NCBI GenBank assembly: GCA_001600175.1
Contig: BCJC01000002.1
Coordinates: 626,318 to 690,317 of the forward strand
Reading direction: 5' to 3'
DNA: 64,000 bases
DNA from: Erythrobasidium yunnanense
Taxonomy: Eukaryota > Basidiomycota > Cystobasidiomycetes > Erythrobasidiales > Erythrobasidiaceae
A program made the position numbers and the translations under genes. Numbering within the stretch: position 1 is the first letter of the stretch; each line of letters starts with the position of its first letter. The notes under the pieces are model-generated. The model was not told the origin of the DNA, ran no database searches, and was given only the letters and a program-made list of their open reading frames with translations. Of this stretch, positions 158 to 48,900 are shown in pieces.

Positions 158-296
158 GCCCGTGTAGCTCAATCGGCAGAGCGTCAGACTTTGTACGTCG
201 ATTTTCTTCCCCCTCACCGCGCTCCCAGACTTACGCATCCACTATAGTACAATCAAGAGCATCTGAATGTCCTGGGTTCGAGCCCCAGCATGGGCG
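158..296 (+). tRNA. Intron-containing tRNA gene, isotype uncertain (Lys-like body)
   Basis: A complete cloverleaf can be folded. The acceptor stem is GCCCGTG with CATGGGC, the D arm has GCTC/GAGC, the anticodon stem is TCAGA/TCTGA, and the T arm CTGGG-TTCGAGC-CCCAG carries a good B box. Position 73 is G. An intron of about 66 nt (roughly 195-260) interrupts the anticodon loop. TTGTAC at the 5' side of the loop can pair with GTACAA in the intron. A T5 run at about 303-307 fits a Pol III terminator. Read by position the anticodon is TTG (Gln) with an unusual T37, while the body and acceptor resemble fungal tRNA-Lys, so the isotype is left open. Confidence 0.8.
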
Positions 297-26710: not shown

Positions 26711-29700
26711 ATGGCCAGCAGGTCCAGCGGCTTAAGCAACATCAATGGCCAAAAGACCACGTCCAAAGCTGCGGGCGACGATGCAGCCGGCTTGACGAGT
26801 TCCTCAGCATCAATGAATCTGGATCATGAGAACAATACGTCTTCAGACGATGACTTTGAAGAGAGCGAGCAAGATCAAGACTACACAAGCGCGATGGAGT
26901 CGGCCCTAAATGCAGACGATGTTGATAACGAAGTCGCGAATGGCGACGAGGAGGAAGAAGGCTTTATCTATGATGGTATAGACGATGAGGATACACAGAC
27001 ATTCAAGAAGGATGCGGATGAAGGCAGACAAGACTATTCCCAGCGGCTTAGGGGTATTCTCGACGATGACGAGCTTGTGCGTCCACAGTCGCACCAGTGT
27101 TTCAAGCAGTATATACTAACCTACTGTTCGTACTGTAGACAAGCGAGCAAGACTCGCAAACTCCGACTGGATCGCAAGGCAGGCCAGAAGCATCTACCTC
27201 ACAAGCATCATCTCAGGATGGTCGCAAGAGCCTAGAAAAGCCTGTTCCTTCTTCTCCATCTCTATCTACCTCGTCTGCAGCATCCGCGCACCCGCCGCGC
27301 TTACCGTCATCCTCTTCTACCGGGTCCTTCTACCATGGTCTGCCAAGTCATCCACGCAGACCACCCATGAATCCGCTCGTCTCGCGCCTGAGGTCTACTT
27401 CTGGAGCGCCATCTCTTTCTCACTCATCATCCTTTCGCTCCTTATCGCAATCATCAACACTTCCGGATCTAAATGGCTTCGCAAATGGTAGCCCGAACGC
27501 ATCTTTTATCGGCGAGCTACCCCCCGACATGCAACGAGCAAAATATGCAAGTCGGCACTCGTCAATGTCCAACATCAGCGAATTCTTGTCGCCTGGAGGT
27601 CAGCGAATAGGCAGCTTCATTGGCCAGCAGGGTGCACGACATGTTTCTCCTTCCCCATCAGAGCTCTTTGCAGACACTCCACAATCCACAAAGTCGCCCG
27701 CGCGGTCTTTGCGGTATGCACAGAGTACAGCCTATGTCTCGCCATTCCGGTGGACAACGCTTCGCAAAGTTACATATCGCATCATGCCGCCTAGCGGCGC
27801 TAATGGAGCGCCCAATAAGACGTCTACTGCGTCTCTCGGCGAACCTACAGCTATGGCAGCGAGCGGCATTATCTGCATAGGCACAACAAAAGGATGGACT
27901 ATGGTCTTCGACTTCACACAAACTCTCCGTTGCGTGTGCGGCAATGACACCATTGTCAAATCCTGTGGAAAGGTCACTGCTCTTGCGATCTCATCGGATC
28001 AGACATTCATAGCTGTGGGCCATCAAAGCGGTCATATCTGCCTGTATGCGCTGGACAAGCCTTCTGTACCGGCACGTTCAGTACAGCCCACAACCATAGA
28101 ACAAGTCAATAACGGAAGAGCCGAAGGTCATCTGAGCCAGAAGAGCATCATCCAGCATATAGGCTTCGTCGGAGAAAGACACACGGCTATTGTCTCTGGC
28201 GATAACCTAGGTCTTGCATTCTATCATTCGCTAGGCAAAGTCTTCGGACTTGCAAACACGGATGTCTTGCGGATATTGGGTAAATACCCTCAAGGCGAGG
28301 CGAATGGCGCTTCCGCAGCTGCACTCTCGTCAAACGCGCTGTTGGCCATGCAACCGCTACCTTTGGGCACCTCAAAGCACTTCAGCGAGGACTATTCTCT
28401 AGTAGCCCTACTTACGCCAGTCAAGCTGGTGATAGCAGGCCTGAAGCCATCTGCGCGGACGTGGTGGAGGTGCATGAATCGTGGAGGAGTAGCAAAGAAG
28501 GATGATGAAGGGGGTGGCTCTTCACAGGGTTGCGTAGCGTGGCTCCCTGCCATAGATGGGAAAGAACCCATGCTTGCATTTACTTGGGATAAAAGCCTAA
28601 GACTGGTCAGACTGAAACAGGAAACGAAGCTTGGGTTAACAAATGGCAGGAGCAACGGGTTGGAAGCGAAAGATAAGGTCAAGGGGAAGGAACAAACGCT
28701 AAAGACGTTACGATTCATGCCGATACAACCGAAGGCTGCTCCTACGTTAAAGACGGCAGAAACGGTGGAAGAAGAGGCTCAGGCTATCTATCAAGCTGAT
28801 TCTACGATCCTCGCTCTGCAATGGCTAAATGCTCAGGTAATACCGCCTCATGCCGCATATGCAACCTCGTCTAATTTTGCCATTCAGACCCTTATCATCC
28901 TTACTGTCAAATGCGTCGAGGTCTTCGACATCGAAAACCGGCAACTTGTTGAGCGGGCAACACTCATCGATCAAAGCATCACACTATCACGTCAATTGTC
29001 GCCGCTTCAAGCGTTGGAAACATACAAGAGCAAAGTCTTCCTCTTCGTGAGCGAATTCACCATATATATCGTCAATGTTGTATGCTAACATCTCCCGCCA
29101 GACTGCGACAGATGTCCGAGCTGGTATCCTACTTTCTTGGGCGGATCGGGTTCTGCAGCTTGTCGATGCTGGAGACCTAGTCGCTGCCATCGAATTGACA
29201 GTCAGCTATTATGATGGCACGGGTGTCCTAGTCGGGGATTCGCAGAGTTTTCATAGCAATTTAGGGCTTCCGTTAGCCTCCGACGCCAGGAAAGCGATGG
29301 TCGAACCTAAGTTACGAGAAATTTTGGCCGCCTCTCTGGACTACGTTTTCTCAGAGAAACGAATGAGGGACAGTACTCACAAGGACTCATCCGGTCGAGG
29401 TGTTGATCGGACACGTCTCTTCGAAACTTTAGTCGATGCTGCCATTCGAGCATGTCTTGTGACAGAGGACTACGATTTCCTCTTTGAAGACATGTACGAA
29501 AGGTATGCTGCGGAAGGGATCGAAGGTATCTTCCTCAGTCGGCTCGAGCCATTCGTACTACAAAGTCTACTGCCAGCCATACCCACCAACATTTCGCAAC
29601 AGCTGCTGCAGCGGCACGAAGACAAAGATGAGCTACAAGAGCTGGAGAACCTCATCTGGCACCTCAAGCCGGAGTACCTCGACGTTAACCAGGCTGTCCG

Positions 29701-31873
29701 ACTCTGTGCTAAGCATAGATTATATAACGCCCTGATATACGTGTACACACAAGCTCTCAATGACTTCGTCGGACCTCTTGTGGAGCTACTTGGTCTTGTC
29801 AAGCGGATCACAGATCATCGCCAGCAACGGCCCAGATGGCTAGACGAAGCCGAAGATCCGCATCCCGGCGCCCTCGAGGAAGACAGCCAGATCGAGTCTT
29901 CTGTCCAAGACGCATACCAGATATATGCATACTTGGCGGACTCGCTCATTGGTCTCGCTCATCCCAGCAAAGAACCGCTACCATCTGCCAAAGCTCTTTC
30001 AGCCAAGAGATCCCTCTACTCCTTCCTATTCTCTCGTAATCCGGCAGTTTACCCTGAAGGCAGCCGTAAACAAGTCCCTGGCTCGGCAGATCAACTTTTC
30101 CCATACCTCCGTCTTCTCCTGCATTTCGACTCAGAGGCAATGCTGGATTGCCTCGATATCGCTTTGGAAGACTCCTACCTCGACGAAGATGCTTCCGGCA
30201 TCACACTTAATAGGCAAGGTATCATAGACTGTTTACTTAGTCTTAGCGACTCCGCCGACATCCCGTCCACGGATCGTACTTTCATCAACATCTTCGCGGC
30301 TCGCAACCTCCCCAAATACATCCAGTTTGTACATTTAGACGATAAAGCAGCACATCGCCTCTTCCTCAATCTCGCTGACGATCAGGACATGTCGACCAGG
30401 GAAGATCGCCAACTGGCCCTTGAGTTTCTCCTCTCCGCCTACACGCCCGAATATACCGATGAGCTTCTGTCTCTCCTAGAAGCAGCATCGTTCTATAGAG
30501 TCCTAGCCTCTATCTACAGGTCTCGGCGCAGATACAAAAAACTAGTATCTGTCTATGTGCGGGATCCAGATCAGGGTTCGCACGTCTTCCAGAACCTGGT
30601 GGAAGTTCTAGCACTCTCAGAAAAGGCTGGTCAACGTACAGAAGTGGAGGACGAGATCGTCCAAGCGATACCTCAGCTTGTAGATTTTGGCGTCGGCGAA
30701 GTTGCAAACCTTGTGGAGAAGACCATGCCGTCGCGCCATTCAGACGCTCTCGCAACACTCAACACCCTGCCACTTCGACAGATGGCATATTTACGTTCTC
30801 TGCTGGATCCGGAATCCGATTCGCTCGAAGAGGCTCACACAGGCGCGAAAACCAGTCCGACTGAGGAGCATAGGCTACAGTACATTGGCCTGGTCTGCGA
30901 TCACGATCCCCAAGGCGTAGTAGCATATCTACAGCGGGATAAAGATCTAAATTACAGTAAGGCCGCCGCTGTCTGTCTGTCCAAGCAGAGTTTCGACGCG
31001 GTCATCTGGCTCGAGTCTCGCAGAGGAGACGTCACTGCAAGCTTACGGACTGCGGACAGAATCATACAGCCTGATACAGTCCTCCTTATAGCTTCCATGT
31101 TTCGACAAGACCCCGACGTATCTGGCTCGATCTCAAGGGTGGTGCGAGCTATGCGCATGGCCATCACGCTCTGCGCTAGTCAGACAAGTCTATCCTCTCC
31201 ACATGAAGCGGAAGAAGCCTGGTATCTTCTCGTGTCCAGCCTTGTCAAGCTCACTCGTAACCTGTCCTCGACGGAGGCAGCGGTAGAACACGATGTTTCC
31301 GGTATTACTGGCCCTCTCCGCGGGCTACTATCCGAAGCATTATCAGCTCTAGCATCAGGCTCATCCAACAACACGACCTCCTTCCCTCGCTTGGTGAACA
31401 GACTCATGGAAGAAACGCCTGCCGCGCAATATGCGGAGTACCGCGAGATTGTCAACACCATGCTACAAACATATGAATTCGAGAGTGATCTACTCCAGAC
31501 CTCGAATAAGCTTACTCAGACCGACCTGTTCCAGCACGTCGCAGAGCTTTCAAAGGAGAAAGCGACAGGCTGGCGCCCCAATATTTCGGGTAATTGTGAA
31601 GCTTGTGGGCGGTCGATCTGGATGACACATCCAGACCAGGAACGCATGTTTGACCCGGAACTTGTGCCTAAAAGCTCTTCGGGTCTGGAAGTTACGGCGA
31701 AACTACAAGGGCGGCCCAGCGTTCGACGGCGGCCGAGCCTGAAAGGCAAAGAAACAGACTGGTACGAAGAACCACCGGCCCAACCTGCAAAGGCAGCCGG
31801 ACAATCAATAGTAGTATTCAGAGGTGGAGCCGCCTGCCATGCTGCGTGCATGGGACAAGGCGCGGTACCATAG
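26711..31873 (+). CDS. VPS8: CORVET complex subunit Vps8
   Basis: Three exons (26711-27076, 27139-29046, 29102-31873) give 1681 aa. The first 310 residues or so are acidic then Ser/Pro-rich and disordered. A beta-propeller follows (GIICIGTTKGWTMVFDF, ALAISSDQTFIAVGHQSGHI), then the Vps8 signature GILLSWADRVLQLVDAGDL at the start of a long alpha-solenoid. The C-terminus has a RING-like zinc site (GNCEACGRSIW and, after a basic insert, ACHAAC). Vps8 is the Rab5-binding subunit of CORVET, tethering early endosomes. The intron at 29047-29101 was chosen because it restores the conserved solenoid start (KVFLF joined to TATDVRAG). The 2.8-kb last exon is intron-free. Confidence 0.93.
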
Positions 31874-32289: not shown

Positions 32290-34194
32290 TTAACCCTTGG
32301 TGATCTTTGGCTCATCAGCCTCGAAAGCGCCCTCGACTCTGCTGTCATCCTCCTCCTTCCACTTCATGGCGCGCTGGATAGCCCTGTTCCAGCCCTTGTA
32401 TCGCTGCGCACGGTCCTTGTCGTCGTTCTTGGGCTCGAAGACGGTCTTGCCAGCTACGTTGACCTTCGTCAAGGTCTCAGGCTTGCTGAGATCCCAGCCG
32501 AAGAGACCGAGTGCGACACCAGCGCAGATCGCGGAACCAAGAGCGGTAGACTCTCTCATCTCGGGTCGCTCAACTGAGATACCGAGGATATCAGATTGCA
32601 GCTGCATGCATACATCAGAGTTGGTCACTGCGAGTGAAGAATGTCAGTAAGCTTATCCGGGAAGAACAGCAGAAGAGGTGCGTGCTCACTTCCACCATCG
32701 ACTCTAAGGACAGCAAGCTCGGACTTGGAGTCTTTAGCCATAGCTTCGAGGATAGCACGAGTCTGGAAGCATGTAGCTTCAAGGGTAGCTCTGGCCAAAT
32801 GCGCTTTGGTGGTATAACCGGTCAGACCGATGATGGTACCGATGGCAGAGTCGTCCCAGTAAGGAGCGAAGAGTCCAGAGAAAGCAGGAACAAAGTAGAC
32901 ACCGCCGGTATCCTTTACGGAACCGGCAAGGGAGCCGATTTCAGGCGAGTCGCTGATGAGAGAGAGCTGATCACGCAGCCATTTGACGGAAGAACCAGCA
33001 ACGGCGATGGAGCCCTCGAGGGCGTAGATGGGCTTAGCGTTGGGACCGGCGCGGTAAGCTGGGGTGGTGAGGAGTCCGTGAGTGGAAGGAACGATCTTCT
33101 CTCCAGTGTTGAACAACATGAAGGCGCCGGTACCGTATCTGTGAGAGTGATTTGTCAGTATCGCAGGCTGGAAAACCGCATCAAGCTGAACTCACGTGTT
33201 CTTGGCTGATCCAACTTCGACACACTGGAAAGCAGGCACCAAGAGTCAATCATATGATACGAGCGCGCTGAGAGTCAAGCGTGTGCTGACCTTGTTACCG
33301 ACGACGGCAGCTTGCTGATCACCGATCATACCGGCAATGGGGAAGCCCTCGAAAGCGCCAGAGGCAACCTTGCCGTACACCTCTGCGTTTGAGACAATCT
33401 TTGGCAAGCAAGTGTGCTTTACGCCAAAGAACTTGAGGCACTCGGCATCCCAGTCGAGGTTCTTCAAGCTCATGAACATTGTTCGGGAAGCATTTGTGCA
33501 GTCTGTGAGGAAGAGACCTCCGTTGAGACCACCAGTCAAGTTCCATAGCACCCATGTCTCGACTGTAGCGCGAAGACAGACAAATATCAGTATGCGAATC
33601 TTTTCCCCGCAAAAATTGAGTGATCGGCTTACCGGTTCCGAAATGCAGGTCGTCCTTGTCGTGGGCTTCCTTGACAGCAGGTACGTTCTCGAGCATCCAC
33701 TTGAGCTTGGTACCGGAGAAGTAGGTAGAGATGGGAAGACCGGTCGTGGCTTTCAAGGCGTCTAGCCCTTTATCGGACTGAGCAGCCAGAGAGCGCACGG
33801 TACCAGTGTTTCGGGTATCTGGCCATGCAATAGCATTGTACAGACCTTTTCCAGTGGATTTGCTCCACACACAGGTGGTTTCACGCTGGTTTGTGATACC
33901 GAGACCTTTTACGTCGGACTTCTTGATGCCTTGCTTCTCGAGCTTGCCTGCAATTCCATCGAGACAGGTGTGGACTGTTCCGATGAGATCCTCGAGTCTC
34001 TGCTCGTGCCAACCGGGGTGAGGATAGATCTGGTCGTACTCAATCTGGTGGGTCGCAAGAGCTTCGGCAGCCTGGTTGAAGAGGATGGCTCTGGTGGAGG
34101 TCTGTCGCAGGATACATTAGTCTTCTGAAATCTTCAATGGCTGCAAGCTACTCACTGTGCCGATATCGACGGAGATGATATACTCGGAAGACAT
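32290..34194 (-). CDS. GUT1: Glycerol kinase (Gut1)
   Basis: Six exons read down the minus strand (34194-34156, 34101-33633, 33562-33291, 33224-33196, 33138-32690, 32627-32290) give 531 aa, close to bacterial and fungal glycerol kinases. FGGY-kinase motifs are intact: [15 protein letters not shown] (phosphate loop), [47 protein letters not shown] and [20 protein letters not shown]. The enzyme phosphorylates glycerol to sn-glycerol 3-phosphate in the cytosol. The 29-nt fourth exon is fixed by the conserved sequence on both sides. It diverges from the aquaglyceroporin gene and lies in a three-gene glycerol block with Gut2. The C-terminus has an acidic extension after [12 protein letters not shown]. 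Confidence 0.96.
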
Positions 34195-34344
34195 GGTGAT
34201 TCAAGGGAAGTGGTTATGAATTGGAGACTGAGTGTAATAAGATGAAGAGAGAGCAAACGTGGAGAATACGGAGGCAAGAGGAGAAGCTGCGAACTGAAAT
34301 GAAACACACAACAAGCTCTGGAAGCCTTATGGAGACACGTCAAG

Positions 34345-34354
34345 TTCACCCGGC
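34345..34354 (+). promoter_or_regulatory. TTCACCCGGC motif copy 1 (glycerol kinase promoter)
   Basis: The sequence ttcacccggcc lies about 150 bp upstream of the glycerol kinase start codon. It matches the copies at 34719-34728 and 36892-36901 at nine or ten of ten positions. Confidence 0.45.
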
Positions 34355-34648
34355 CTGTACACGCGATGGAGACTCCGGATAAAGCAATGCACCAACCAAG
34401 TAGCCGGGGGATTAACCGTCAAGAGAGTCACTGATTTCCAACAGAGACAGCGTAGATTACCCAGCAGTGGCAGTTCAATCATCACTCGCAGCCCTATCGG
34501 ACCTCCACGTCCGTTGTGAGGATCTCCCACCCAGAACCCAGAACATGAAGAACAACCAGAAGAAGCGGAGTTTGGGCAGATTATCCGCCGAGTGCACATC
34601 AGTCGGGTCAACTTGCAGATTGAGCCTTCCTTCGGCCATTGAGGTAAC

Positions 34649-34660
34649 CGGTGATCACCG
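34649..34660. promoter_or_regulatory. Perfect 12-bp palindrome in shared promoter
   Basis: The sequence cggtgatcaccg is self-complementary and lies roughly midway between the glycerol kinase and aquaglyceroporin starts. It could bind a dimeric regulator, but no match to a named fungal site is claimed. Confidence 0.4.
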
Positions 34661-34718
34661 TCAGTGCAGCACGAGGCCCGGAAGCCGTTGCAACTGACAA
34701 GGAACAAGGCACCGCACT

Positions 34719-34728
34719 GCCGGGTAAA
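34719..34728 (-). promoter_or_regulatory. TTTACCCGGC motif copy 2 (shared promoter)
   Basis: On plus it reads gccgggtaaa, so the motif TTTACCCGGC lies on minus. It sits between glycerol kinase and aquaglyceroporin, about 400 bp upstream of the latter. Confidence 0.45.
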
Positions 34729-35122
34729 TCTTGGTCAATTTGAATTTTAATGTGGAAAGCATGTGATGAAGGACCTGTCGGGCTTGGAGTTCCGTGCTCA
34801 CTTGACCACTTCTTTCAAGTTTACCCTGCTTGCAGTTCCCACACTTCGCGCGTGTGCGTGCATTGTGCAAGTTCTGGCTCATCTTCCAGCCTCCGCTTCA
34901 TCATCCATCATCTTCTTCAAGTTGATTCATCTCCATCTCCTCTCTCTCTTCTCTCTCTCCTCGCTTTCTTTAGCTCCACTTCTCCACGCTCATCCCCGTT
35001 CTCTCTTCCAAGAACAAGCAAGAAGAAAGAAGAACTTGAAGAAGCAAAGTCGGCCTTTCCAGCTTTTCCATCTCTTACATCCCTCTTCACCTCTGCTTCA
35101 CTGCATTAGTTCAGCAACAGCC

Positions 35123-36640
35123 ATGCCTGCTTCCCGCCCTAACTCGCGGCCCGTCTCGCGCTCAAACTCCATCAGCGAGGCGCCTATCAACTTGCCGGTA
35201 GACCATCGCATCGCTCATCTCGGTGCAGAGGAGCACACCCACAACAGACATGGTCATCATCACAATACTCAGGATCCAAAGCTCTTTGGACCGGGTTTCT
35301 CATCTGCTGCTCCCCACTCCGCGGTAGAAGGCCAAGTTCGATATGTCCTCGTGACTCCCGAGATGCTTCAGGCAATCGAGTCTGGTGAGTTCGAACAAAG
35401 AGACTGGATATTCAAATGCACTGCTGACGGTGTTTGCGCTTTGTAGGAACCGCTCCTCACACAAACCTCGTGCATCCTGCAGGAACGGATCTGCGAGCTC
35501 CGACTCCCTCGCACGGCTTCCGAGCAGCAGAGTCGAGGACACATCTCCCTACTCTCGGCAAAGAGGGAGGAGCTCTCTCAGCTAGCAGCACCGGCGAGAA
35601 GGGCGAAGCTCTCCACAACGAGGTCGATACTCTCGATGTCGCTCCCTACGACCCTACAGAGCCCCAAAACCCATGGGCCAGAATCAGAAAACAATTCAAG
35701 GAGCCCTTTGGTGAATTCATCGGCACCATGATCCTCATCATCTTCGGAAACGGTGTCAACTGCCAGGTCGTCCTCTCAAGGCTCACTCAAGGTTCTTATC
35801 TCTCTATTTCGTTCGGCTGGGGTATCGGTGTTATGTAGGTGTTTTCCAATTTCTCTGCGACTCTCTGTGAATTGTAGGCTGACGCAGCTTCTCTCGCGCA
35901 GGTTCGGTGTCTACGCTGCCGGTGGTATCTCTGGTGCTCACATCAACCCTGCTGTCACAATCACCTTGGCCATCTTCCGTGGTTTCCCATGGCGAAAAGT
36001 GCCCGGCTACGCAATCGGTCAGCTCGCTGGTGCCTTCCTCGGATCTGTTCTCATTCAGTCCAACTACTGGAACTTAATCAACGAGTACGAAGGTGGTTCT
36101 GGCATCCGAACATTCGGAGGCGAGAACTCTACTGGTGCTCTCTTCTTCACCGCTGCTCAGCCATACATGACCAACGTGTCTGCCTTCTTCTCCGAGTTCT
36201 TCGCAACTGCCGTTCTTCTGGGACTCATTCTCGCTCTCGGTGACGCAAACAACAATCCTGCGCCTGCCGGTATGAACGGAATGATCCTCCTCTGGTTGAT
36301 TGTTGGTCTCGGTGCCGCCCTCGGAACACAGACCGCATACTGCTTGAACCCTGCAAGAGATCTCGGTCCCCGTATCGCAGCTGCATGCTTCGGCTACGGC
36401 AGAGAGATCTGGACCTACAGAAATGGATACTTCGCATATGTCGCCATCATTGCGCCTATCTGCGGTGCTATCTTCGGTGGCTTCTTCTACGACCTCTTCA
36501 TCTTCGTGAGTTACCTTCTACATTCTCTGCAGGAAGAGCGCGAATACTGATGCATGTTACAATTACAGAGTGGACCCGAGTCGCCTCTCAACAGACCTTG
36601 GGGCAAGAAGAAGCAGCAGCAACAACAGATCGAGGCTTAA
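35123..36640 (+). CDS. Aquaglyceroporin (MIP family glycerol facilitator)
   Basis: Four exons (35123-35384, 35447-35834, 35902-36505, 36569-36640) give 441 aa. A hydrophilic N-terminal extension of about 185 residues (Ser/Pro, then a His-rich EEHTHNRHGHHHNTQ) precedes the six-helix channel. Both NPA boxes are present: GGISGAHINPAVTI and AYCLNPARDLGPRIAA. The Asp after NPAR is typical of glycerol-conducting rather than water-only channels. The C-terminal tail is Lys/Gln-rich (KKKQQQQQIEA). It would move glycerol across the plasma membrane and could also serve osmotic release, as Fps1 does in yeast. It shares a promoter with glycerol kinase and precedes Gut2 by about 400 bp, a context that favours a role in glycerol uptake. 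Confidence 0.94.
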
Positions 36641-37046
36641 ACGCTTCAGACTGTAGTTGGCTAATCGTCTGCCTATCAAAAGCAAACACTTTCATCGCGC
36701 GTAACGCGATTCCTAATCTTACCACAGTACTGGATTTTCGAGTTGGGCCGGTCAAAGGCAGTGTATAGGATATATAGCTATCTTGGTTGAACACAGAAGA
36801 CCGTGTATATATCGCATTTTTCCGAAGTTGTTCTCTCTACCATAGGTGCAGTTTGGGCAAATAAGCGTGATTTCAGATTGTTTGGCTGAAGTTTACCCGG
36901 CCCTGACCTCTCTCTAGTGGCCAAAGTTGCCTTCGCCTCTGCTATCTCTGCTTCTTCAGGATCTTCTTCTCTCTTTTCTTGCCTCTTTCAATTCATTCGA
37001 ATACAAACTAGGGTTTCCTTCCTACCATCCGGATTCCTTGAAGAAA
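36641..37046 (+). promoter_or_regulatory. Gut2 promoter with TTTACCCGGC motif
   Basis: This is a 400-bp region upstream of the Gut2 ATG. It carries gtttacccggcc at 36891-36902, matching the two motif copies in the glycerol kinase/aquaglyceroporin promoter, and a TC-rich stretch just before the start codon. Confidence 0.5.
36892..36901 (+). promoter_or_regulatory. TTTACCCGGC motif copy 3 (Gut2 promoter)
   Basis: The sequence tttacccggcc lies about 150 bp upstream of the Gut2 start codon, a distance similar to copy 1 from its gene. Confidence 0.45.
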
Positions 37047-39698
37047 ATGGCAGCTCGCTTCGCCAGGCTGCGAGCAAGCGCTGGAAAGCCTGTCGTTATC
37101 AGAACAGTCGCAGTAGGAGCTGCAGCGACAGTCGCAACTCTCTACGTTCAGAGACAGCAGAAGCTCCGACTCGATGCCGCGAGAGACAACGATCCAGTCT
37201 TGAAAGCTCCTCCTCTGTCATGGGTCCCTCCGTCACGAGATGAGATGCTGCAAGCTCTCAAGAAGGGCTCTATGCTCGACAAGAAGTATGAACCTTCCGA
37301 AGAACTCGCTCGAGCAAGAGACGTGAAAATCCCTGATATCGGAACTGGCGACGAAGGGTATGATTTGCTCGTAAGTGACGTCGTGCCTAGCCTTTCCGAA
37401 CAGCATACAAGCAGCTGGCTGTGACGAAAATAACATATACTGATATTGCATGATCCACGGTAGATTGTGGGAGGTGGTGCGACCGGAGCTGGTACAGCTG
37501 TCGATGCAGCTGCTCGGGGTCTTAAAGTCGCAATGGTCGAGCGTGACGATTGGTCTTCCGGTGAGTTGCTATCATAGTACTACCAAGAATCTGCTAAACA
37601 TTGTCATTGCTGCAGGCACTTCCTCCAAGTCAACCAAGCTCATCCACGGTGGAGTCCGCTATCTCCAGAAAGCCATCATGGAGTTAGACTACGAGCAGTA
37701 AGTTCTTCGACTTGGTCACATATGCGCTCAATGCTGACGTTACGCTTGCTTCTGCAGATGGAAGCTCGTCCGAGAAGCTCTCCACGAGCGCAAGACATTC
37801 CTTGAAATCGCACCCTATCTTTCTCACCCACTCCCTATTATGCTTCCTATCTATACGTAAGCACTTTCCACTCTATGGACGAGAAAGCCGGCTAACGAAA
37901 GCTTATCACAGATACTGGCAAATTCCTTACTTCTGGTCTGGCTGCAAGGTCTACGATGTTCTTGCTGGTCAGTCGCAATGACAATCATGATACATACGTC
38001 TTATGTGCTGACTATTTATGCTTTGTGCTAACAGGAAAGCAAAACATGGAAGGCTCTTACTTCATGAGCCGGGGCAAGACCTTGGCACAATTTCCCCTGC
38101 TTAAAGACCAAAATCTACGTGGTTCCCTCGTCTACTACGATGGTAAGTATAAGCCGAAGTCCGCCAGTTCCATTGAGCTCTCGCTGACCTGGCGTGTGTC
38201 TCCAGGTCAGCATAACGATTCTCGCATGAATGTCGCTCTAGTCATGACAGCCGTACAACAAGGATGTGTCGCTGCAAACCATACCGAAGTCGTTGCTGTA
38301 CACAAGGACGCCAATGGTCGATGCAACGGTGCTCGGCTGCGTGATAACATCTCCGGCGACGAGTGGAACGTCAAGGCCAAGGTGGGACTACACGATTGAA
38401 TAAGACTGTTATGACATGCACCTGACGTATTGAATCCTCAGGGTATCATCAACGCGACTGGACCTTTCAGCGATGGTGTACGCAAGCTAGACGATCCCTC
38501 AGTACAGACTATCGTAGCTCCTTCTTCTGGAGTGCACGTCACCCTCCCCAACTACTACTCGCCTCAAACAATGGGTATGCTTGACCCCGCTACTTCAGAC
38601 GGAAGAGTCATCTTCTTCCTACCATGGCAAGGCAACGCAATCGCCGGAACTACAGACTCAGCTTCGCCCGTTACTGCCAACCCTATTCCTAAAGAAGAGG
38701 AGATTCAATGGATTCTGGGAGAAGTGCGAAACTACCTTAGCAAGGACATCGAAGTTCGACGCGAAGATGTTCTTTCCGCTTGGTCCGGTATCCGACCTCT
38801 GGTACGAGACCCAGATGCGAAGAACACCGAGTCTTTGGTCCGTAACCACATGATCAACATCTCGCCAAGTGGACTCCTCACTATCGCTGGTGGAAAATGG
38901 ACAACATACCGGGTAGGCGAGCTTTGTTGGATAGCTACATACTCTTGGCTGACTTATCAATCTTCGCAGGCTATGGCTGCTGAGACTGTCGACGCCGCAA
39001 TCAAAGAGTACGGACTGGAAGTCAGCGCTGTATACCCATGCAAGACCGAAGCGCTCAAGCTTCTTGGTTCTCACGGATGGCACAAGAACCTTTACGTTGA
39101 GCTCATCCAGAAGTACGGTCTCGAGACGGCTGTTGCCAAGCACTTGACCGACACCTACGGAGATCGGTCGCTCAACGTCTGCGACATGGCCGAGAAGACC
39201 GGACATAGATGGCCAATCCACGGAAAGAGAATCGACCCAGTCTATCCTTACATTGAGGCTGAGATCCGCTATGCATGCCGGAGAGAGTATGCTCAAACGG
39301 CAGTCGACGTTATCGCCAGACGGGTAAGTCGCATAGCGGTATTGTACGGGCCTAAGAAGTATACTGAGGCTGCATATCTTTAGACACGACTTTCTTTCCT
39401 GAACTCGCAGGCAGCTCTTGAAGCTCTGCCAAAGGTCATTGATATCATGGGTGCTGAGCTGAGCTGGTCTAGCAAGAGGCAAAGCCAAGAGTTCGAACAG
39501 GCAAAGGAGTTCCTCCTCTCCATGGGACTACATCCATCCCTTCAAGATGCTACCTTCGAGGACGTAAAGAAGGGCAACATCGCCGCTCGCCGCAGCTTGG
39601 GCGACCCTCCTCACACAGCTCAGCTAGAGGACCCTTCTGCAGGCAGCAAGTCGGAGCGTAGACAAATACCCGTTGAGCGCAGCGGTGGCGGTACTTAG
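37047..39698 (+). CDS. GUT2: Mitochondrial FAD-dependent glycerol-3-phosphate dehydrogenase (Gut2)
   Basis: Ten exons (37047-37370, 37464-37560, 37616-37697, 37758-37856, 37912-37967, 38035-38142, 38206-38381, 38442-38912, 38970-39323, 39384-39698) give 693 aa. The N-terminus is basic with a hydrophobic stretch (VVIRTVAVGAAATVATLYV), fitting import and inner-membrane anchoring. The FAD-binding motif is IVGGGATGAGTAVDAAARG. Other family blocks are STKLIHGGVRYLQKAIMELD, VYYDGQHNDSRMN, GIINATGPF and GKWTTYRAMAAETVD. It oxidises glycerol 3-phosphate to dihydroxyacetone phosphate and passes electrons to ubiquinone. In context it completes the glycerol uptake-kinase-oxidation set encoded by the two genes upstream. 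All introns are GT-AG. Confidence 0.96.
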
Positions 39699-39934: not shown

Positions 39935-42900
39935 CTATGCAAGTCTAGATTGGACATCTTCGTCGTCTGACCATGGCTGGGTCTTTTTCAGAAGCTCGCG
40001 CGCTTCTCGTGCAGGTCTGGCCACACCAGGATGTTCGTTCACGACGTTCTTCAGGATCCGCGATGTAATGCGGCTCGGGTTGTGCTCGTACAGTTGCGAG
40101 GGAGCAGTCTCGAGGCCCTCCAAGATCGAGACACTCGACAGTGGCGTCGCTTTCCCTTCAAGGAGCATCTGTACAAGCGACTCTGCCTCAGCCATCCGAT
40201 GAAGTAGCATTCCAGCCAATGTCCGCGCAATGCCGTTGTTGAAGGATTCTTTACTAGGTTCCTCGAGTGTAGCACGCACAAGACCCGCTACTGCACTTCT
40301 TGCAGGTGGAGTCATGTTGGCTCCGCCTGAGCGAATTACTTGGCCCAATGCGTTCGACATGGCATCCCGCACCTCTTGCTCATCGTGGCTGCAGCCGTTG
40401 ACTAGCTCCGTTATGAGCGGATCTATACGTGGCTGCAGCGACATAAGTATGCCAAGGCCGAGAGCTGCCTTTTGCCGGATGGTACTGCTGGACAGCTCCG
40501 AGAGATTCTTCACGAATGTCCTTTGCAATTGGGGGAAGAAAGGTCGAACAAATTGTGGAGCCTTCGTCAACAGGACAGCGAGAGTTGACAGGATTGCTGC
40601 TTTGACGGGTGGTGGATAGCGTTCAGCAATAATACGAATGAGGGGTCTGGGTAAAATCGAATGTCAGCGGTTTGCATTCCGATTTCAGGTCAAAAGAGCG
40701 TACCCAGTGATTTGGGTGACATGTGGCTTAAGCGCATCTGTGGTAGTGCGCTCAACGATATCGCCCAGGCCGTAGGCCGACTGTTCGCGCTGCTCGTTCG
40801 TGCCAGCAAGCAAGCCTTGAATAAGGATAGGTAGAACAGGTTTGAGACCTCCAGGTCTGCAGAATCCGGCTATATCATTGCCTGCTGAAGACGTAGTTTC
40901 GACTGTTCTCCGTAAGGCGGGCGCTAAGCCTTCCATGTGCTCTTTCGTGAGTGTCTTGCTCAAGGCTTCCATAGCGTCGATAGCGGCAGCAACGACTTTG
41001 TCTTCGCTGTCCTCGTATAACGCAAGTATGCGCCGAAGCCTGCGTCAGAATCCGTTAGCTATCAAATCGTACCTAATTCAATATATTGCAATCTGCGCAC
41101 CAATCGATATGATAAGCCGAGAAATCTTCCTCCGTAGTCTGGCAGAAGGTTGCGAATAGCTCGCACCCTCCGACGCGCTTCGCAACTCTTGGATCTTTGG
41201 CCAGGCCAAGCAAGTGTAGCATGAGCATATGCAGTCCTTCGACGTCTTCAACTGAGCCCAGAACAGCCTTGATGGTCGCTTCAAGGTCGCTCTTGATGTC
41301 CGGGTCGGTCTGTGAGTCTTTGTTAGATTGCAGTGCATCCAAAATCTGGGCGAGGCGTCGATTCAGCGCAGATCCTGCTACTCCGACCAGGGAGCCCAAA
41401 GCCTGGGCGTTGAAAGCGGAGATAGGTGTGGCTATGAGGGTAGGGATGAGGATAGGGAAGATCGCTTGGGCGCGAACAGCCATTCTGCATCAAAAGGGAT
41501 GAGTGTACATTTTCTGAAGAAACCACGGTCACATACAATTCCTTGAGAGCAGACAACGCAGCCTCGCTAGCGCTTCCTGCCTGCGTAAGTGCAGCCAGCA
41601 AGGTCGGTATGGTCTGATCAATGGAGCGAGGACCGATCTGCGTTTGCAGAGCATCGAAGGCCTGAGCAGCAGCCTGCCGCACAGCTGGACTGTCGTCAAC
41701 CAACGCGCCGCGAACGCTGTTGATGATGTCGTCCTCGCTAGTGTGAGTGCAATGTCAGTACAGACAAAAAAGATTTTGTGAGGCGCGCGACTTACTGGCC
41801 TTCCAACTGCGCTTTCGTAGTTGTCTCGAGGATCTCCGCAAATGCAAGGCAGCAGCCTTGACGCGCTGCTTCATTACCTTGTGAAGCTCGCTGTAAAATA
41901 GGAATGACCTCGCCAAGCACACGGTCACCTTGTTTGCGACACAATCTGAAGTGCATGATTAGTCTGATACGAGGTATCTGATCAGACACGGCGAGCTTAC
42001 TCTCCGAGTGTTCGGGCAGTCATCTCTCTTTGCTCGCCTTCGGACGATGCGAGCAGACGAATAATAGTATGCACTGCGACAAGGGCGTCAGAGGCATTGA
42101 GAGGAAATGGGATCAACACCTACTGAGTGACGAGAGGATCTCGCGAACGGTACGTGGTGTGTTCGTGACCAGTGCCTTCCAAACGTTGAGCGAGAACATA
42201 CGAACTTGACCAGCCGAATCTTGACGCAGAATATACAGACTAGCGAGAACGCGGTCACGGCGATCTTTGCCGAGGACTTCCAGCATCTTTTTGGCAGCTT
42301 CTGCATTGCTAGTATACGCATCGTCCTCCTCTTCGTTCCCTTCCTGCTCCATCTCCGCCTTACCACTGATGCCAGAAATCCTGAAAAGCAACTCTCCGAT
42401 GAGCTGAACCGAGGATAGTCGAATGCGCCAACTGTGATCAAAGAGCCCACGCTCGAGTTCGGGCAGGAGCAAGTCGATTGCTTTTGTCGCATGGTTGTTG
42501 ACTATCATTCGTCCAGCTCGCATGGAAGCTGTCATAGACTAGTCAGGTATGGTTACATGCTATAATGCGCAAGGACTCACCTTCTCGCACAAAGTCGCTG
42601 TCATCTGCCAAACCGCTTAGTACCGGCTGTATGATGCGACCGAGATAGGGAGAGAAGCGATCGCCGAATACAGAAGGAAGGTATATGAGGAGTGAAATGT
42701 AGCCCTCTCTAACGTATGCACGGCTAGAAGAGGTGCTGGCGATGATGGAAGGCAGCATGCTCTCCATACGCTCGACACCGAGACCTGACAAAACTTCTGC
42801 CAGGCCTTGGGCAGCTCCTTGCTGATCGACACCGCTAGCATCTGAATGCAGTATATCCGACAGGTCATCGACCAAAGTAGGGAATGCGTTTTCACCCAAG

Positions 42901-45900
42901 CGTTCGATGAGTACTCCAAGTGATTTTGCGGCGGTTGCTCGAGCTTCCGGTACAGGGTCAATAAGAACCTCCCGGACTCTCGGTATGATTTGCGGAAGAT
43001 AGGGTATGAGATCTTTTGAGTCCGTCAAAGAAGCCATATTGCCAACAATCTGTGCTCCTTTCCGTTTCAGTTCGGTGCTTCGCTCGCGCAGACCGCGATC
43101 GATAATAGGCACAATCTGTGATAGACCATCAGTTTGAGCTTTTCTCGGCTGATCCACGCCCAGATTGTAGCACTTACGAGCGCTAAAGAGGACGTGTCAA
43201 TATAATGTACGAAGGAGGTTGTGAGAAGAGTATCTAGTGCCTTGCCGGTCTTCTTGGTGGGATCGACCAGTGCGGCAAGCAGGATACTCTGCATGGCTTG
43301 AATTTCTGGGTTGTCCACCACCTGTATCACTTACGAAATTAGCTGCTTGCGGACAATCCTCCACACCCAAAGCACATACCTCTCCAAACTTCTTCAGACT
43401 GGCGTTGGCAGATGTGCGGACTTGGGTATGCGTGTCTGTCAGGACTTCGGTCAAAGGTGGAATGATTGTAGGGAGTGATCGAGACAGCTGGCGGGGCGCA
43501 AGATAGGCCATCGCGCCCATAAGTTCAATGGCTCCCTTTTTAGTACGCCATTCTGTTTATAAAATATCAGCAAACTGTCGACTCGCGAAGCATTGCATGA
43601 ACATACGTCGCTCTTGTAAGGCATCCAGAAGCACCGGAAGGATCTGCTTGACGGCGTGTCCTGAAACGCGAGTCATAATAACCTTGGCAGCGTCGGCGGT
43701 CGCATCGCGCACATCTGTTGAGGTGTCGCCAAGGCAGGTGAGAAGGAGCGGGAGGATCTTGATTATGTAAGGCTCGAACAGCCGGCCGAGAGTAGAGGAC
43801 AAGGTTTCGAAAGCGAACATTGCACCTTGACGTGCATTCTGGTTTTTCTTGTCCTCTGCAGCATCCTGAAGGCGGATCATTATGTTGAACTCTTTCATAG
43901 AGGTGATACCCCTCCCTTTAACCGCTCCAGCCAGACCGTAAGCAGCACCCCTTCGCTCTGCATATCTACTAGCCTGAAGTGTTTCTCGCAGTAACTGCTC
44001 GATGACTTTGGCACCTCGGGTGGAGTTCGCACGTACCAGAGGTGGTAGACAATCGGACACAGCGAATTGAACAATCTCTGACGGGGTCTTGAGGGCAGCC
44101 ATCAATCTCTCAATAACATCGCCAACGCGAGAATCGGAGCTGTCCAGATGACGTGCTAGACGTCCCAGGAGCACTATGACTGATTCGGTTACTCGATCTC
44201 CGACTTCATTGCTGGCCGACTGTGATCCAAGGTAGTCCTGGAATTGTGTCATCAAGGGTTGTAGATTGGCCTTGCCCTGGGCGTCTATGGTCGCAATACC
44301 GGCCTGTAGCGCAACGTGAGCTCGATCACTTGGTCAAATTCGACAACACTTACATCCAGCATCTTCGACCGGACTTGTTCGGAGCGATCACCCAGCGCTT
44401 GATCGGCCACGATCAGTCGGAATAGCTGTTCCACTTGTTCAGGTGCATAGTATGGTGCGAGATGCTGCAAAGCTTCGGCATGTGCACTTCGAGCTTTCCA
44501 AGGGTCCTCTTGGTGAAGAGATGCTTCGATGAGCATGCCGAAGCGATCGTACTCCGGAAGGCGCTCTTTGGCGGCTTCTTGGTAGTCGCGAGCAATGCGG
44601 CCGAGTGCCTCGCTGACAAGTGTCGGGACTTGTTCAACGGCCTTTGCAATCGCCAGTGCTGCAGAGGCGCGAACGAAAGCGGTCCTGTGGTCTGAGAATA
44701 GCATTAGATGAAGTGGAACTAGACGATGTGACCATGTCTTACCGAGGAACGGTGCTAGAGTATCTATTGCGCTGTCCTTGATGTCAAGACCATTGTCCTC
44801 CCAGATGGTGTTTGCCAGATCAGCGTTTCTTTCATCGCTGTCCTGACATACGATCCACAACTCTGGAGTATAATCCAGGTCCGTCAGGTCCAGTGGCTAA
44901 TTAGGAATGACCAATTAGCTGGCAGGCTATACTGTTTCGGGCAGAACCTACTGTCAGCGCTTGCAAGCAAGCATGCCTGACTTGCACCTCTTCTGCCATC
45001 ATACTCTGCAAGAAGGCAGATATTTCGGCTTGGGTAGCATTGGTCTCGATCGCCCCGCCAAGATCCTGTAAGGCTGTCGAAGCAGGTTGTGACAGAGATG
45101 GATACTTTGCGATGGCGAGGACCAGAGCTTGTAGAGTCTCCAATCTAGGATAGGATGTGTCCTTGACTGTAATATTTACGCGATCAGATAAGGCATTATC
45201 GAGGGCTGAGAGCTTACATTTGTTAGCATGAAAGAGAATCACGTCGATGGCAAGGGCCAACTGTTCCATAGATGCATCGTTGTCGCCTTTGCTCACGCCA
45301 GTACCTTCATCTTGAATACATAGGTGTAGTAGCGGTGCGGCCAATGCATATGTACTGGGGTCGAAAGCCTCACGCTCGCTCTGAAATCGCAATCGGTACA
45401 AAACTCGGGTGGCAAGTACTGATAGTTCTTCGACGTCGAATTCGGCAGGTACTACGATAGACCGAGCTCCTCGCAGAACAGCCAGAGAGAGGGATAAACG
45501 GATGTCGCTGATTCTGTCCGAGCAGCTTTCGTACAGTCGCTGTTCGTAATGGTCAGCTAGAACCCGCACATCCGAACACGCAAATGACCTTACCAGGATC
45601 GTCTGGAACGCTTCCTCTCTATAAAGCTGCGCCTGGGGCATCATGGAAGCTGCCAGGATTGGTGTGAGGATAACCGGGATGAAGTCCCTAAGGAGCTCGG
45701 TAGATCCGGATTTGAGGAGACTCTGCGTAGTCTGAAAGGCTTTCCGTATCTCAGCCAAAGCCAAGACTATCCGTGAACGAATCTCCCGTTCTTTGCGGAG
45801 CTGTTCATCGACGAGGGCCTGGTCTGCTTTAGACAATTTCATAGCTGCGCCCCCAGTGCTACGTTTCTTCGCTTCGAGGGCTTTACGAGTCTCCTCGTCC

Positions 45901-48900
45901 CATTTGTCTATGGCTGCATTCTTTCCTTTGGATGTAGTAGCGGCGGCGCCCTTTGCGTTTGCCAGAACTAGAATGGAAGTTCAGCTCAGATGGCATATAC
46001 ATACGCTTTTATGAGTATAACTTACCGTCTACGAAGGGTGTATCTTCGGCGGTTTCCAATATACCCATCTCGACGTCACCGACGTATTTCAGATTCGCGA
46101 CGTCTACGCCGCGGCGTATTTTATCGATGAAGATGGGTAGATATTTTTCTGGCGCCACGAAAACCACAGTAGAGATCGCCTTATATGCAGCTTGCACGAA
46201 AGTGGCGGTTTCATGGGTTTGTGCAGTCGCGACTTGGGCCAATATTTCGGAACTTTCGGACGCGGCTACTTCAGCTGGATCGCATGAGGCGGCTATCGCC
46301 AGGTCTACCCAGAGTGAAGGACGTGTAGCGGCTTAAATGGAGGCATGAACTCAATGATTCCGTAAAGATAGGGAAGCCAGTCACTCACAGATGGCACCAT
46401 GATGAGCCAGAACTATGAATCTAGCGATAGCAGCTTTTTGGCCAACTGCCGCACGCGCTAGAGACAGCAAAAGAGCTTGCAGACGCGATGAGCGATCTGG
46501 CGCACGGTACTCCTCCGAAGCGGCTGCGGCCAGTTGGTCTTGCTTTTCGATCTGGGCAAGCCAATGACCGAGACCCGGTATGAAGATGGTACCTGTGTTT
46601 GCCTCGTATTCTTTCCTGGCGATATTTTCGATGGCCCGCAGAGCGTCCTTCCGATGTGCATTCTTAGAGCTTTCTAAGGCTACGTGAAGGAGTGGCAGAC
46701 TTGCAGCGATTCTAAGGGCATGTAGGTAAGCGAAGCTCCAGGTGGACATTTGGATGCACGCTGCTTACCTGTTGGATTTATCGCTGCCTGATAGGTGAGA
46801 GGTGGCAGCTAACAAGGTGCTTTCGAGCGCGCGGACCAGCCAAATCTCATCTTCGGCGTTGGAAAGCTTCTTGTATGCTCGCTCAGCGAGAAGGAATGAG
46901 GGTTTCGGAGAATGAGAAAGTATGTTCTGTAAATTGGGGTCTTTCTGCAGTAAACTATCGACCTGAGCTATCTTCCACCGCGACAATACGCCTTTTAATA
47001 CTGCTGTGGCTATCCAGCCTTCTACAGCTGACCCTGCGGTCACCGTACTGGCAGTCTTTACAGCAGCTTCTAGCGCCGGTAGTATCGCCTTGACCAGCTC
47101 TTGCTCGGCAGCGTCGGGTTCAGTCACCTGCCCAGAAAGCCGCCAGAACAATTCTCCAACTGCAGTAAGGTAGCACCGCCGTGTGTTCACCTTCGTATCT
47201 TTTGCACCCTTCGCGAGTATTGTGATGGAAGGCTGCACCTTTTGTGTCGAATCGACCTTCAGAAGCACAAGCATTGCAGTGACCAAGGCATCCAAGGATG
47301 CCTGTAAGGCTGCCTCGTTCGCCTCTTTGGCTAGCGCAGCGGCTATAGACTCGGCAATCTCGTGAGCGATATCGGTCGACGGCTCGTTAGAAGACAGCGT
47401 AGAGAGCAGCATCTGACTAAGAGCTATCCGGTGTTCCGGTGAAGCCGATTTGTTGGTACGTAGGGGTAGAGCGATGTCTTTGGCCATAGCTAGGAGTGTT
47501 GAGGCTGATACGGGATCTAGCAGAAGTGATGAGACGAGGGTGTTGTATAGAAGAGCGGACGCTGATCGGACCAGAACATTGCTGGACTTGGCAGCTGACA
47601 TTATTTGAGGTAGAAGCTTCCTTGTGATGAGCTCCGTAGGCGGTGGTTGCACTCGACTCCGGCCGTGCGCAAGTGTTGTTGGGGCAGTGTATGCGGTAAA
47701 GAAAACGTCCAGAGTCGTCAGAGCGACTTCAGGACTGCGAAGCAGCGCTCTGTCCATTGCCTTCACTAGCTCGCTGTCCAATGCTAGATCTTCCGGTAGT
47801 ACGAAAGACCCGACAAAGTCATTGAACGCGGTCGTAATATGAGGGAGAAGAGGCGTCCTTGATGCGAGAATATGCTCCCTATAGTAGGCAAGGATAGCCG
47901 ATTTCTCGGCTTGTACCCATGCCATACTTTGAGTCACGTTGACCGTCCTCGTCTTCTTGATGCGCACGGATACATCGATGACAAGTCCGAGCAAAGCTGC
48001 AGTTGCAGTAGGCGGTTTGATCGAGCCTGGGGTGTGGAGTGTCTCGAGTAGATCGGGTATGAGGACAGCGTTCTGTTGGATCATGAAATTAGTAGAGGCA
48101 TTCGGCGTAGGTGCACGACTTCGTGACACACCTGCCGCACTGTGCGACGCATATTCATAGTCCCGCTCTTCCTGACAGGCTCCCGCAGGGTCGCTATCTG
48201 CGATGCATCGTAGCATATTGCCATACTTCTCAACAGGGGCTGCCAGCTCTTGTGATCTTTTCCAAAGCCTTCTGTTCCCAATGCTTTCGTGTGTGCATCG
48301 AATACGGTAGCTATCCAGGCAAGAAGATTGACAATTGTGGTACCGGCCGCAAAGGACGTAGGAGAGCATACTTTGGTGGTTACTTCGGTCTCGAGCCATT
48401 TGACAGCGGCTTCGGAAAGCTTGCCAGATTGCTTCTGTAGGTCGGTAGTGATTATGAGCTTTACGCATTCCTGCACTGCGTCTCTAGACGGCCTATCGAT
48501 ATATCGCGAATACGTAGGGACCAGGATCTTGAAGACAGCAGCAGTCTGCTGGGGTGTCAAGGCTAGACAATTCGAATCATGCATTGAAGGCCGAAAGTCA
48601 GTCAATGCCCTGAGTCTGCTGGCGCTGGCTCAGCACGCACATTCCTTCTTAAGATTCTTGATGAGGGCCTTGTTCAGAAAAGCAAGTCTTATGCTCGTCT
48701 TTGTACTCGAGATGCATTTGCGAGCGGTCTCTTCGAAATTCTCCCAATCTTGACTTGGATCTAGATAGCCGCCTTCTTCCTTTGCGTGGCCTCTTCCATT
48801 GACTTCTCTGCCGTTCACGCCTGCCTGACTCTGGCCGTCATCTGAGCCGTCTTCGCTGGATCCATCATCGCCTTCGAGGTTTTGCTGGCCGGCGACCCAA

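What the first reader, a model, noticed from the sequence alone, without database searches (positions are those of the whole stretch)
32290..39698. Eukaryotic glpFKD-like cluster: glycerol kinase, aquaglyceroporin and Gut2 side by side
Three consecutive genes encode glycerol entry, phosphorylation and oxidation to dihydroxyacetone phosphate. Kinase and channel share a divergent promoter, and the FAD dehydrogenase follows the channel on the same strand. In the yeasts I know these genes are scattered. The layout equals bacterial glpF-glpK-glpD in content. The domain motifs are seen directly, while co-regulation is inferred.
Basis: partly seen in the sequence, partly recalled or inferred. Interest (0 to 1): 0.85.

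Follow-up and report, generated by a model that had tools for sequence, protein, structure and literature searches.

The report
Fungal glycerol-use gene cluster
In this fungal DNA, the three genes for taking up glycerol, phosphorylating it and oxidising it sit side by side, and their control regions share a short DNA word found nowhere else in the window, which suggests they are switched on together.

Summary
32290-39698 carries intact spliced genes for a glycerol kinase (minus), a glycerol-type MIP channel (plus) and mitochondrial Gut2 (plus), flanked tail-to-tail by VPS8 and GCN1. New here: AAGTTNACCC occurs four times in 64 kb, all in the two intergenic stretches holding the three promoters; 0 of 2000 shuffles matched that. 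All three genes have introns and the kinase lies on the opposite strand, so this is no bacterial-style operon. Conservation could not be tested; no eukaryotic genome is held. From paper passages: Cryptococcus neoformans GUT1 and Gut2 have distant locus tags. Yarrowia lipolytica FPS1 and GUT1 have nearby tags and are both glycerol-induced, GUT2 being on another chromosome, so the kinase-channel half has a probable precedent. None of my ten paper searches, several with capped lists, listed the three-gene set by title or abstract start. Verdict: a probable catabolic gene cluster, a new member of a known kind.

The parts
32290..34194 (-). Glycerol kinase (GUT1-like), 531 aa, exons 34194-34156, 34101-33633, 33562-33291, 33224-33196, 33138-32690, 32627-32290
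   Evidence: Spliced frame without internal stops; FGGY_N and FGGY_C; best solved match a glycerol kinase, 4.1e-160
35123..36640 (+). Aquaglyceroporin-type MIP channel, 441 aa with a ~170 aa N-terminal tail, exons 35123-35384, 35447-35834, 35902-36505, 36569-36640
   Evidence: MIP 2e-40, residues 170-413; alignment to Aquaporin-3 gives filter W-G-Y-R, two NPA motifs and Asp after NPAR (which positions form the filter is recalled)
37047..39698 (+). Mitochondrial-type FAD glycerol-3-phosphate dehydrogenase (Gut2-like), 693 aa, 10 exons: 37047-37370, 37464-37560, 37616-37697, 37758-37856, 37912-37967, 38035-38142, 38206-38381, 38442-38912, 38970-39323, 39384-39698
   Evidence: DAO and DAO_C; 1.2e-76 to a solved glycerol-3-phosphate dehydrogenase
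34195..35122 (.). Divergent intergenic region of kinase and channel (928 bp), holding four copies of the shared element (one of them a variant)
36641..37046 (.). Intergenic region upstream of Gut2 (406 bp), holding one copy of the shared element
34342..34355 (+). Shared element, copy 1 (AAGTTCACCCGGCC), 148 bp upstream of the kinase ATG
34601..34614 (-). Shared element, copy 2 (AAGTTGACCCGACT)
34718..34731 (-). Shared element, variant copy 3 (AGATTTACCCGGCA)
34817..34830 (+). Shared element, copy 4 (AAGTTTACCCTGCT), ~300 bp upstream of the channel ATG
36889..36902 (+). Shared element, copy 5 (AAGTTTACCCGGCC), 145 bp upstream of the Gut2 ATG
27139..31873 (+). Flanking gene VPS8, convergent with the kinase: left boundary, not part of the cluster (extent approximate)
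   Evidence: Vps8 beta-propeller 6.4e-45, Vps8 central TPR 8.3e-60
39935..48483 (-). Flanking gene GCN1, convergent with Gut2: right boundary, not part of the cluster (extent approximate)
   Evidence: Gcn1_N 3e-47, HEAT_GCN1_fung 1.2e-20; HEAT_EF3_N 1e-31 and, for the ORF next to Gut2, HEAT_GCN1_C_2 at 25.4 bits, below its cut-off of 27

Best explanation
This is a native fungal (probably basidiomycete) catabolic gene cluster for glycerol. The channel lets glycerol in, the kinase traps it as glycerol-3-phosphate, and Gut2 on the mitochondrion oxidises that to dihydroxyacetone phosphate. All three promoters lie inside the cluster and share an AAGTTNACCCGGCC-like element, most simply read as the binding site of one transcription factor that turns the three genes on together. 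Shown: gene families, order, intact frames and the motif's confinement within this window. Inferred: glycerol transport by this channel, binding of the motif, and joint induction.
For: Gene models and families. The channel filter W-G-Y-R with intact NPA motifs matches the beta cluster of fungal aquaglyceroporins, found mainly in filamentous Basidiomycota, in PMC4236510 (section 8 and passages). AAGTTNACCC: 4 of 4 window copies lie in the two promoter regions. 0 of 2000 dinucleotide shuffles of those regions gave any exclusive shared pattern with 4 copies, and 6 of 2000 gave as many as the 4 exclusive shared patterns seen. 0 of 1086 same-shaped placements elsewhere in the window gave more than 2 such patterns. 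The sites lie 148 bp from the kinase ATG and 145 bp from the Gut2 ATG. Both outer boundaries are tail-to-tail. In Yarrowia, FPS1 and GUT1, with nearby tags, are both strongly induced by glycerol and GUT2 much more weakly (passages of PMC6893183).
Against: No expression data and no related genome to show that linkage or motif is conserved. In Cryptococcus neoformans GUT1 and Gut2 carry distant tags, so linkage is not general in basidiomycetes. The motif was found by inspection first and the unbiased scan came after. The 1086 placements overlap and amount to about 20 independent ones. With two mismatches allowed the word is not enriched (9 found, 7.97 expected). The 928 bp gap may hold two separate promoters. 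Only one of the three genes (the channel) gives a hint of lineage.
Confidence: 0.67

Rival explanations
1. Chance neighbours: three ordinary genes brought together by rearrangement in this lineage, regulated as scattered GUT1 and GUT2 are elsewhere, with no function in the linkage.
For: GUT1 and GUT2 have distant tags in Cryptococcus neoformans, where both are nevertheless reported repressed together under cationic stress and induced together in three mutants (passages of PMC11355346), so linkage is not needed for co-expression.
Against: Chance adjacency of three genes of one short pathway is about 4e-7 on assumed gene numbers. The shared motif is confined to their promoters within the window.
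Confidence: 0.2
2. The shared motif belongs to a general promoter factor of the Reb1 type, with core TTACCCG, not to a glycerol-specific regulator. (Compatible with the cluster being real.)
For: 2 of 5 copies contain TTACCCG. The Reb1 core is recalled, not looked up.
Against: 3 of 5 copies break that core. TTACCCG occurs 6 times in the window (2.9 expected; 9 of 100 shuffles reach 6) and 4 of the 6 lie outside the cluster promoters. The longer AAGTTNACCC word is seen only at the cluster.
Confidence: 0.25
3. The cluster is a bacterial glp operon acquired by horizontal transfer and later given introns.
For: Content equals glpF-glpK-glpD. One fetched bacterial locus (L001, Endobacter) has all three genes within about 4 kb. 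The kinase is 49.5% identical (247 of 499 aligned) to solved kinase 2d4w (bacterial, recalled), hardly less than the 51.2% (260 of 508) to 6zq4 (fungal, recalled).
Against: Gut2 has an N-terminal extension with a hydrophobic stretch before the FAD domain and every gene has introns. The kinase is on the opposite strand. The best of 17 loci from a peptide-pattern scan of bacterial and archaeal genomes encodes a kinase 45% identical, though one search shows that scan missed closer ones. GC is even, 0.50-0.52 over the cluster.
Confidence: 0.05
4. The channel serves glycerol release or osmotic balance (Fps1-like), and its place beside the catabolic genes is incidental.
For: Fungal MIP channels include exporters such as S. 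cerevisiae Fps1 (passages). The ~170 aa N-terminal tail could be regulatory.
Against: The filter is W-G-Y-R with intact NPA motifs, unlike Fps1-type filters (W, L/I/M/N, T/C/A/S, R). The divergent region carries the same element as the Gut2 promoter. [quoted passage not shown]
Confidence: 0.12

Closest known systems
Yarrowia lipolytica FPS1-GUT1 neighbourhood (YALI1_F00616g, YALI1_F00654g)
   Same: Aquaglyceroporin and glycerol kinase carry nearby tags on one chromosome and both are strongly induced by glycerol (passages of PMC6893183). That the tag spacing means about 4 kb is my recollection of the numbering scheme.
   Different: GUT2 is on another chromosome (YALI1_B18499g). 'Adjacent' and 'neighbor' do not occur in that paper's main text. 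The Yarrowia channel is called an Fps1 orthologue, while the window's has a beta-cluster type filter.
Bacterial glpF-glpK-glpD genes
   Same: Same three activities; L001 (Endobacter) carries all three side by side.
   Different: No polycistronic layout here: divergent kinase, introns, a separate 5' region for each gene, mitochondrial-type Gut2.
Fungal catabolic gene clusters: GlcNAc cluster in Candida and Trichoderma (PMC4950302, title and start of abstract in listing), D-galacturonate two-gene cluster in Rhodosporidium toruloides (PMC6918025, passages)
   Same: Non-homologous genes of one catabolic pathway lie adjacent in a fungal genome.
   Different: Those serve other substrates. No glycerol-3-phosphate pathway cluster showed in the listings of searches, judged by titles and abstract starts.
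Beta-cluster fungal aquaglyceroporins (PMC4236510)
   Same: Filter W-G-Y-R (20 of 24 members), NPA substituted in 12.5% only, mainly filamentous Basidiomycota.
   Different: No tree was built here. Gamma2 (ascomycetes) can share the filter with intact NPA; alpha and some Yfl054-like members share the filter type, but alpha NPA motifs are substituted in 95.8%.

Membership tests
Fungal catabolic gene cluster | Several non-homologous genes of one pathway directly adjacent | tested here: met
   kinase, channel and dehydrogenase with only 928 and 406 bp between coding ends
Fungal catabolic gene cluster | Common regulation of the members | tested here: inconclusive
   Shared promoter element; no expression data
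Fungal catabolic gene cluster | Linkage kept across related species | not testable with these tools
   No eukaryotic genome held; locus tags from papers give a partial precedent (Yarrowia) and a counter-example (Cryptococcus)
Bacterial glpFKD operon | Content: facilitator, kinase and FAD dehydrogenase | tested here: met
Bacterial glpFKD operon | Genes co-transcribed on one strand | tested here: not met
   Kinase on the minus strand, 928 bp divergent gap, introns in all three
Beta-cluster fungal aquaglyceroporin | Filter W-G-Y-R with intact NPA motifs | tested here: met
   Alignment (filter positions recalled) read against Table 1
Beta-cluster fungal aquaglyceroporin | Placement in that clade of a tree | not tested
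   No fungal MIP sequences held
Mitochondrial glycerol-3-phosphate dehydrogenase (Gut2) | DAO plus DAO_C domains | tested here: met
Mitochondrial glycerol-3-phosphate dehydrogenase (Gut2) | N-terminal mitochondrial targeting/membrane stretch | tested here: inconclusive
   Hydrophobic stretch about residues 16-34 read by eye from the translation; no targeting predictor run
Reb1-type site | Core TTACCCG (recalled) | tested here: not met
   2 of 5 copies carry it

The most novel reading that the evidence does not exclude
A complete eukaryotic glycerol regulon: uptake, phosphorylation and oxidation genes held together and driven by a dedicated, undescribed regulator through the AAGTTNACCCGGCC element, kept by selection in one fungal lineage and partly paralleled by the Yarrowia channel-kinase pair.
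Probability: 0.35. Interest if true: 0.65.

Novelty: new member of a known kind. Interest (0 to 1): 0.48.

Why it matters
Catabolic gene clusters in fungi let one ask why eukaryotes sometimes bundle a pathway. A full glycerol cluster with a specific promoter word would give a testable candidate site and a way to find the glycerol regulator of the organism, which matters for oleaginous and glycerol-fed yeasts. The partial parallel in a distant yeast, if it holds, would point to repeated selection for keeping channel and kinase together.

Tried and rejected
Bacterial capture of a glp operon: held unlikely on introns, strand and Gut2's N-terminal extension. Kinase identity does not decide it: 49.5% to a solved kinase I recall as bacterial against 51.2% to one I recall as fungal; the 45% comes from a scan that missed closer kinases. 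I raised this rival from 0.03 to 0.05, and lowered the main reading from 0.68 to 0.67, on that check. Reb1 as sole reading of the motif: the core is absent in 3 of 5 copies. Known sites by recalled consensus: none clearly enriched in the cluster promoters. Mig1/CreA 1 against 0.69 expected, Adr1-like 2 against 1.21, CCAAT 1 against 1.86, UAS-INO and CSRE 0. The motif with two mismatches is not enriched (9 found, 7.97 expected, 36 of 100 shuffles reach 9), so the signal rests on the stricter word. The leave-Gut2-out matrix put the Gut2 site first in the window, but the four training sites were partly chosen for likeness to it, so I give this little weight. Ten paper searches listed no report of the three-gene cluster. 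Several lists were capped (20 of 34, 20 of 45, 12 of 38, 40 of 143, 15 of 42), I judged by titles and abstract starts, and the library lacks most subscription journals. Fifteen papers were opened: section 8 and passages of PMC4236510, passages only of the other fourteen. PMC5021340 (X. dendrorhous) and PMC9781776 said nothing on linkage in the passages seen; R. toruloides tags for GUT1 and GUT2 were not in the passages seen. The species of the window was not identified.
Full report
Observation. The region holds three genes as stated. I built gene models by hand from splice signals and frame. The kinase runs on the minus strand from ATG 34194 to 32290 in six exons (531 aa), the channel from 35123 to 36640 in four exons (441 aa), and Gut2 from 37047 to 39698 in ten exons (693 aa). 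None has an internal stop. Pfam gives FGGY_N and FGGY_C, MIP, and DAO plus DAO_C, each far above its curated cut-off. Comparison with solved structures puts the kinase with glycerol kinases (best 4.1e-160, 'Glycerol kinase-like protein' 6zq4, which I recall as the Chaetomium enzyme). It puts the channel with glycerol-conducting aquaporins and GlpF, and Gut2 with a glycerol-3-phosphate dehydrogenase and glycerophosphate oxidases.

The channel. In the alignment to Aquaporin-3 the selectivity-filter positions, which I place from memory, read W, G, Y, R; both NPA motifs are intact and an Asp follows NPAR. PMC4236510 (section 8 read, other passages seen) gives W-G-Y-R for 20 of 24 beta-cluster fungal aquaglyceroporins, a cluster mainly of filamentous Basidiomycota with NPA substitutions in 12.5%. 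The ascomycete gamma2 cluster can share filter and NPA; the alpha cluster shares the filter but has substituted NPA motifs in 95.8%.

Surroundings. To the left lies VPS8 on the plus strand and to the right GCN1 on the minus strand. Both are tail-to-tail with the cluster, so the promoters of all three glycerol genes lie inside it. Of the 59 stop-to-stop ORFs of at least 150 aa in the window I scanned 30 more against Pfam: 17 had no match and 13 had one. The matches include Rax2, Josephin, an APC11-type RING, a mitochondrial carrier, a haem peroxidase, redoxin and a phosphoglucomutase domain just under its cut-off. None was a further glycerol gene, but genes made of short exons would be missed. 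Base composition is even.

A shared promoter word. Reading the two intergenic stretches side by side, I saw AAGTTCACCCGGCC before the kinase and AAGTTTACCCGGCC before Gut2. TTYACCCGGC occurs three times in 64 kb, 0.12 expected, all in these stretches. Because this was seen first and tested second, I ran an unbiased scan of all 10-mers with one free position, leaving out patterns of fewer than three different bases. The top pattern was AAGTTNACCC with four copies in the window, three in the divergent stretch and one before Gut2, none elsewhere. Dinucleotide shuffles of the two stretches gave such a four-copy pattern in 0 of 2000, and as many as the four exclusive shared patterns seen in 6 of 2000. 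Same-shaped placements elsewhere in the window gave at most two patterns in 1086, but these overlap heavily. With a fifth, variant copy there are five sites, 148 bp from the kinase ATG and 145 bp from the Gut2 ATG. Against it: with two mismatches allowed the word is not enriched, two of five copies contain the recalled Reb1 core, and I know of no protein that binds it.

Origin. One scan of the bacterial and archaeal genome collection with the kinase found 17 loci, the best 45% identical. That scan uses six short peptides and misses relatives. A solved kinase I recall as bacterial (2d4w) is 49.5% identical over 499 aligned positions, almost as close as 6zq4 with 51.2% over 508. So kinase identity alone does not settle descent. 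In L001 (Endobacter) the channel and Gut2 queries also match beside the kinase, and in L004 Gut2 does; in the other 15 of 17 loci neither query matched at 1e-5. Introns in all three genes, the divergent kinase and the N-terminal extension of Gut2 make fungal genes that came together the better reading, not a captured operon.

Other fungi, from papers only. No eukaryotic genome is held. Cryptococcus neoformans GUT1 is CNAG_01155 (passages of PMC8092302 and PMC5959073). Gut2 is CNAG_02814 (passages of PMC6811503 and PMC12139526), while PMC3119188 lists 02815 as GUT2. Tags so far apart should mean the two are unlinked there, if tags run along the chromosomes. PMC11355346 reports both repressed under cationic stress and both induced in three mutants. 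Where the Cryptococcus channel gene lies I did not establish. In Yarrowia lipolytica YlFPS1 is YALI1_F00616g, YlGUT1 YALI1_F00654g and YlGUT2 YALI1_B18499g. FPS1 and GUT1 are strongly induced by glycerol and GUT2 much less (passages of PMC6893183). Nearby tags suggest that channel and kinase are neighbours; that step rests on my recollection of the numbering.

Judgement. The gene content is certain for practical purposes. That the three genes form a co-regulated catabolic cluster is likely (0.67) but not shown. No paper in the listings of my ten searches describes this three-gene arrangement in title or abstract start. Several of these lists were capped and the library lacks most subscription journals. 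Fungal catabolic clusters are a known kind, so I file this as a new member, with a candidate regulatory word as its most useful part.

Noticed in passing
Papers, not the window: Cryptococcus neoformans CNAG_01744 (GPP2) and CNAG_01745 (sn-glycerol-3-phosphate dehydrogenase): Two glycerol-synthesis genes seem to have consecutive tags, so a glycerol synthesis pair may be clustered in a basidiomycete that has the catabolic genes apart. I recall an aquaporin at CNAG_01742 as well.
   Followed up: no
window 158-296 (+): Rfam finds a tRNA with a long insert (139 nt in all, 53.9 bits) that ARAGORN missed, probably an intron-bearing tRNA.
   Followed up: no
window 35123-35630: The channel has a ~170 aa N-terminal tail with Ser-, Arg- and His-rich stretches (it begins MPASRPNSRPVSRSNS) that could be a regulatory, phosphorylated region.
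   Followed up: no
window 34880-35120: A long CT-rich tract lies between the promoter elements and the channel ATG, as in a pyrimidine-rich fungal 5' leader.
   Followed up: no
window 55767-56843 (-): A fragment of an animal-type haem peroxidase (1.7e-19), possibly a fungal fatty-acid dioxygenase gene.
   Followed up: no
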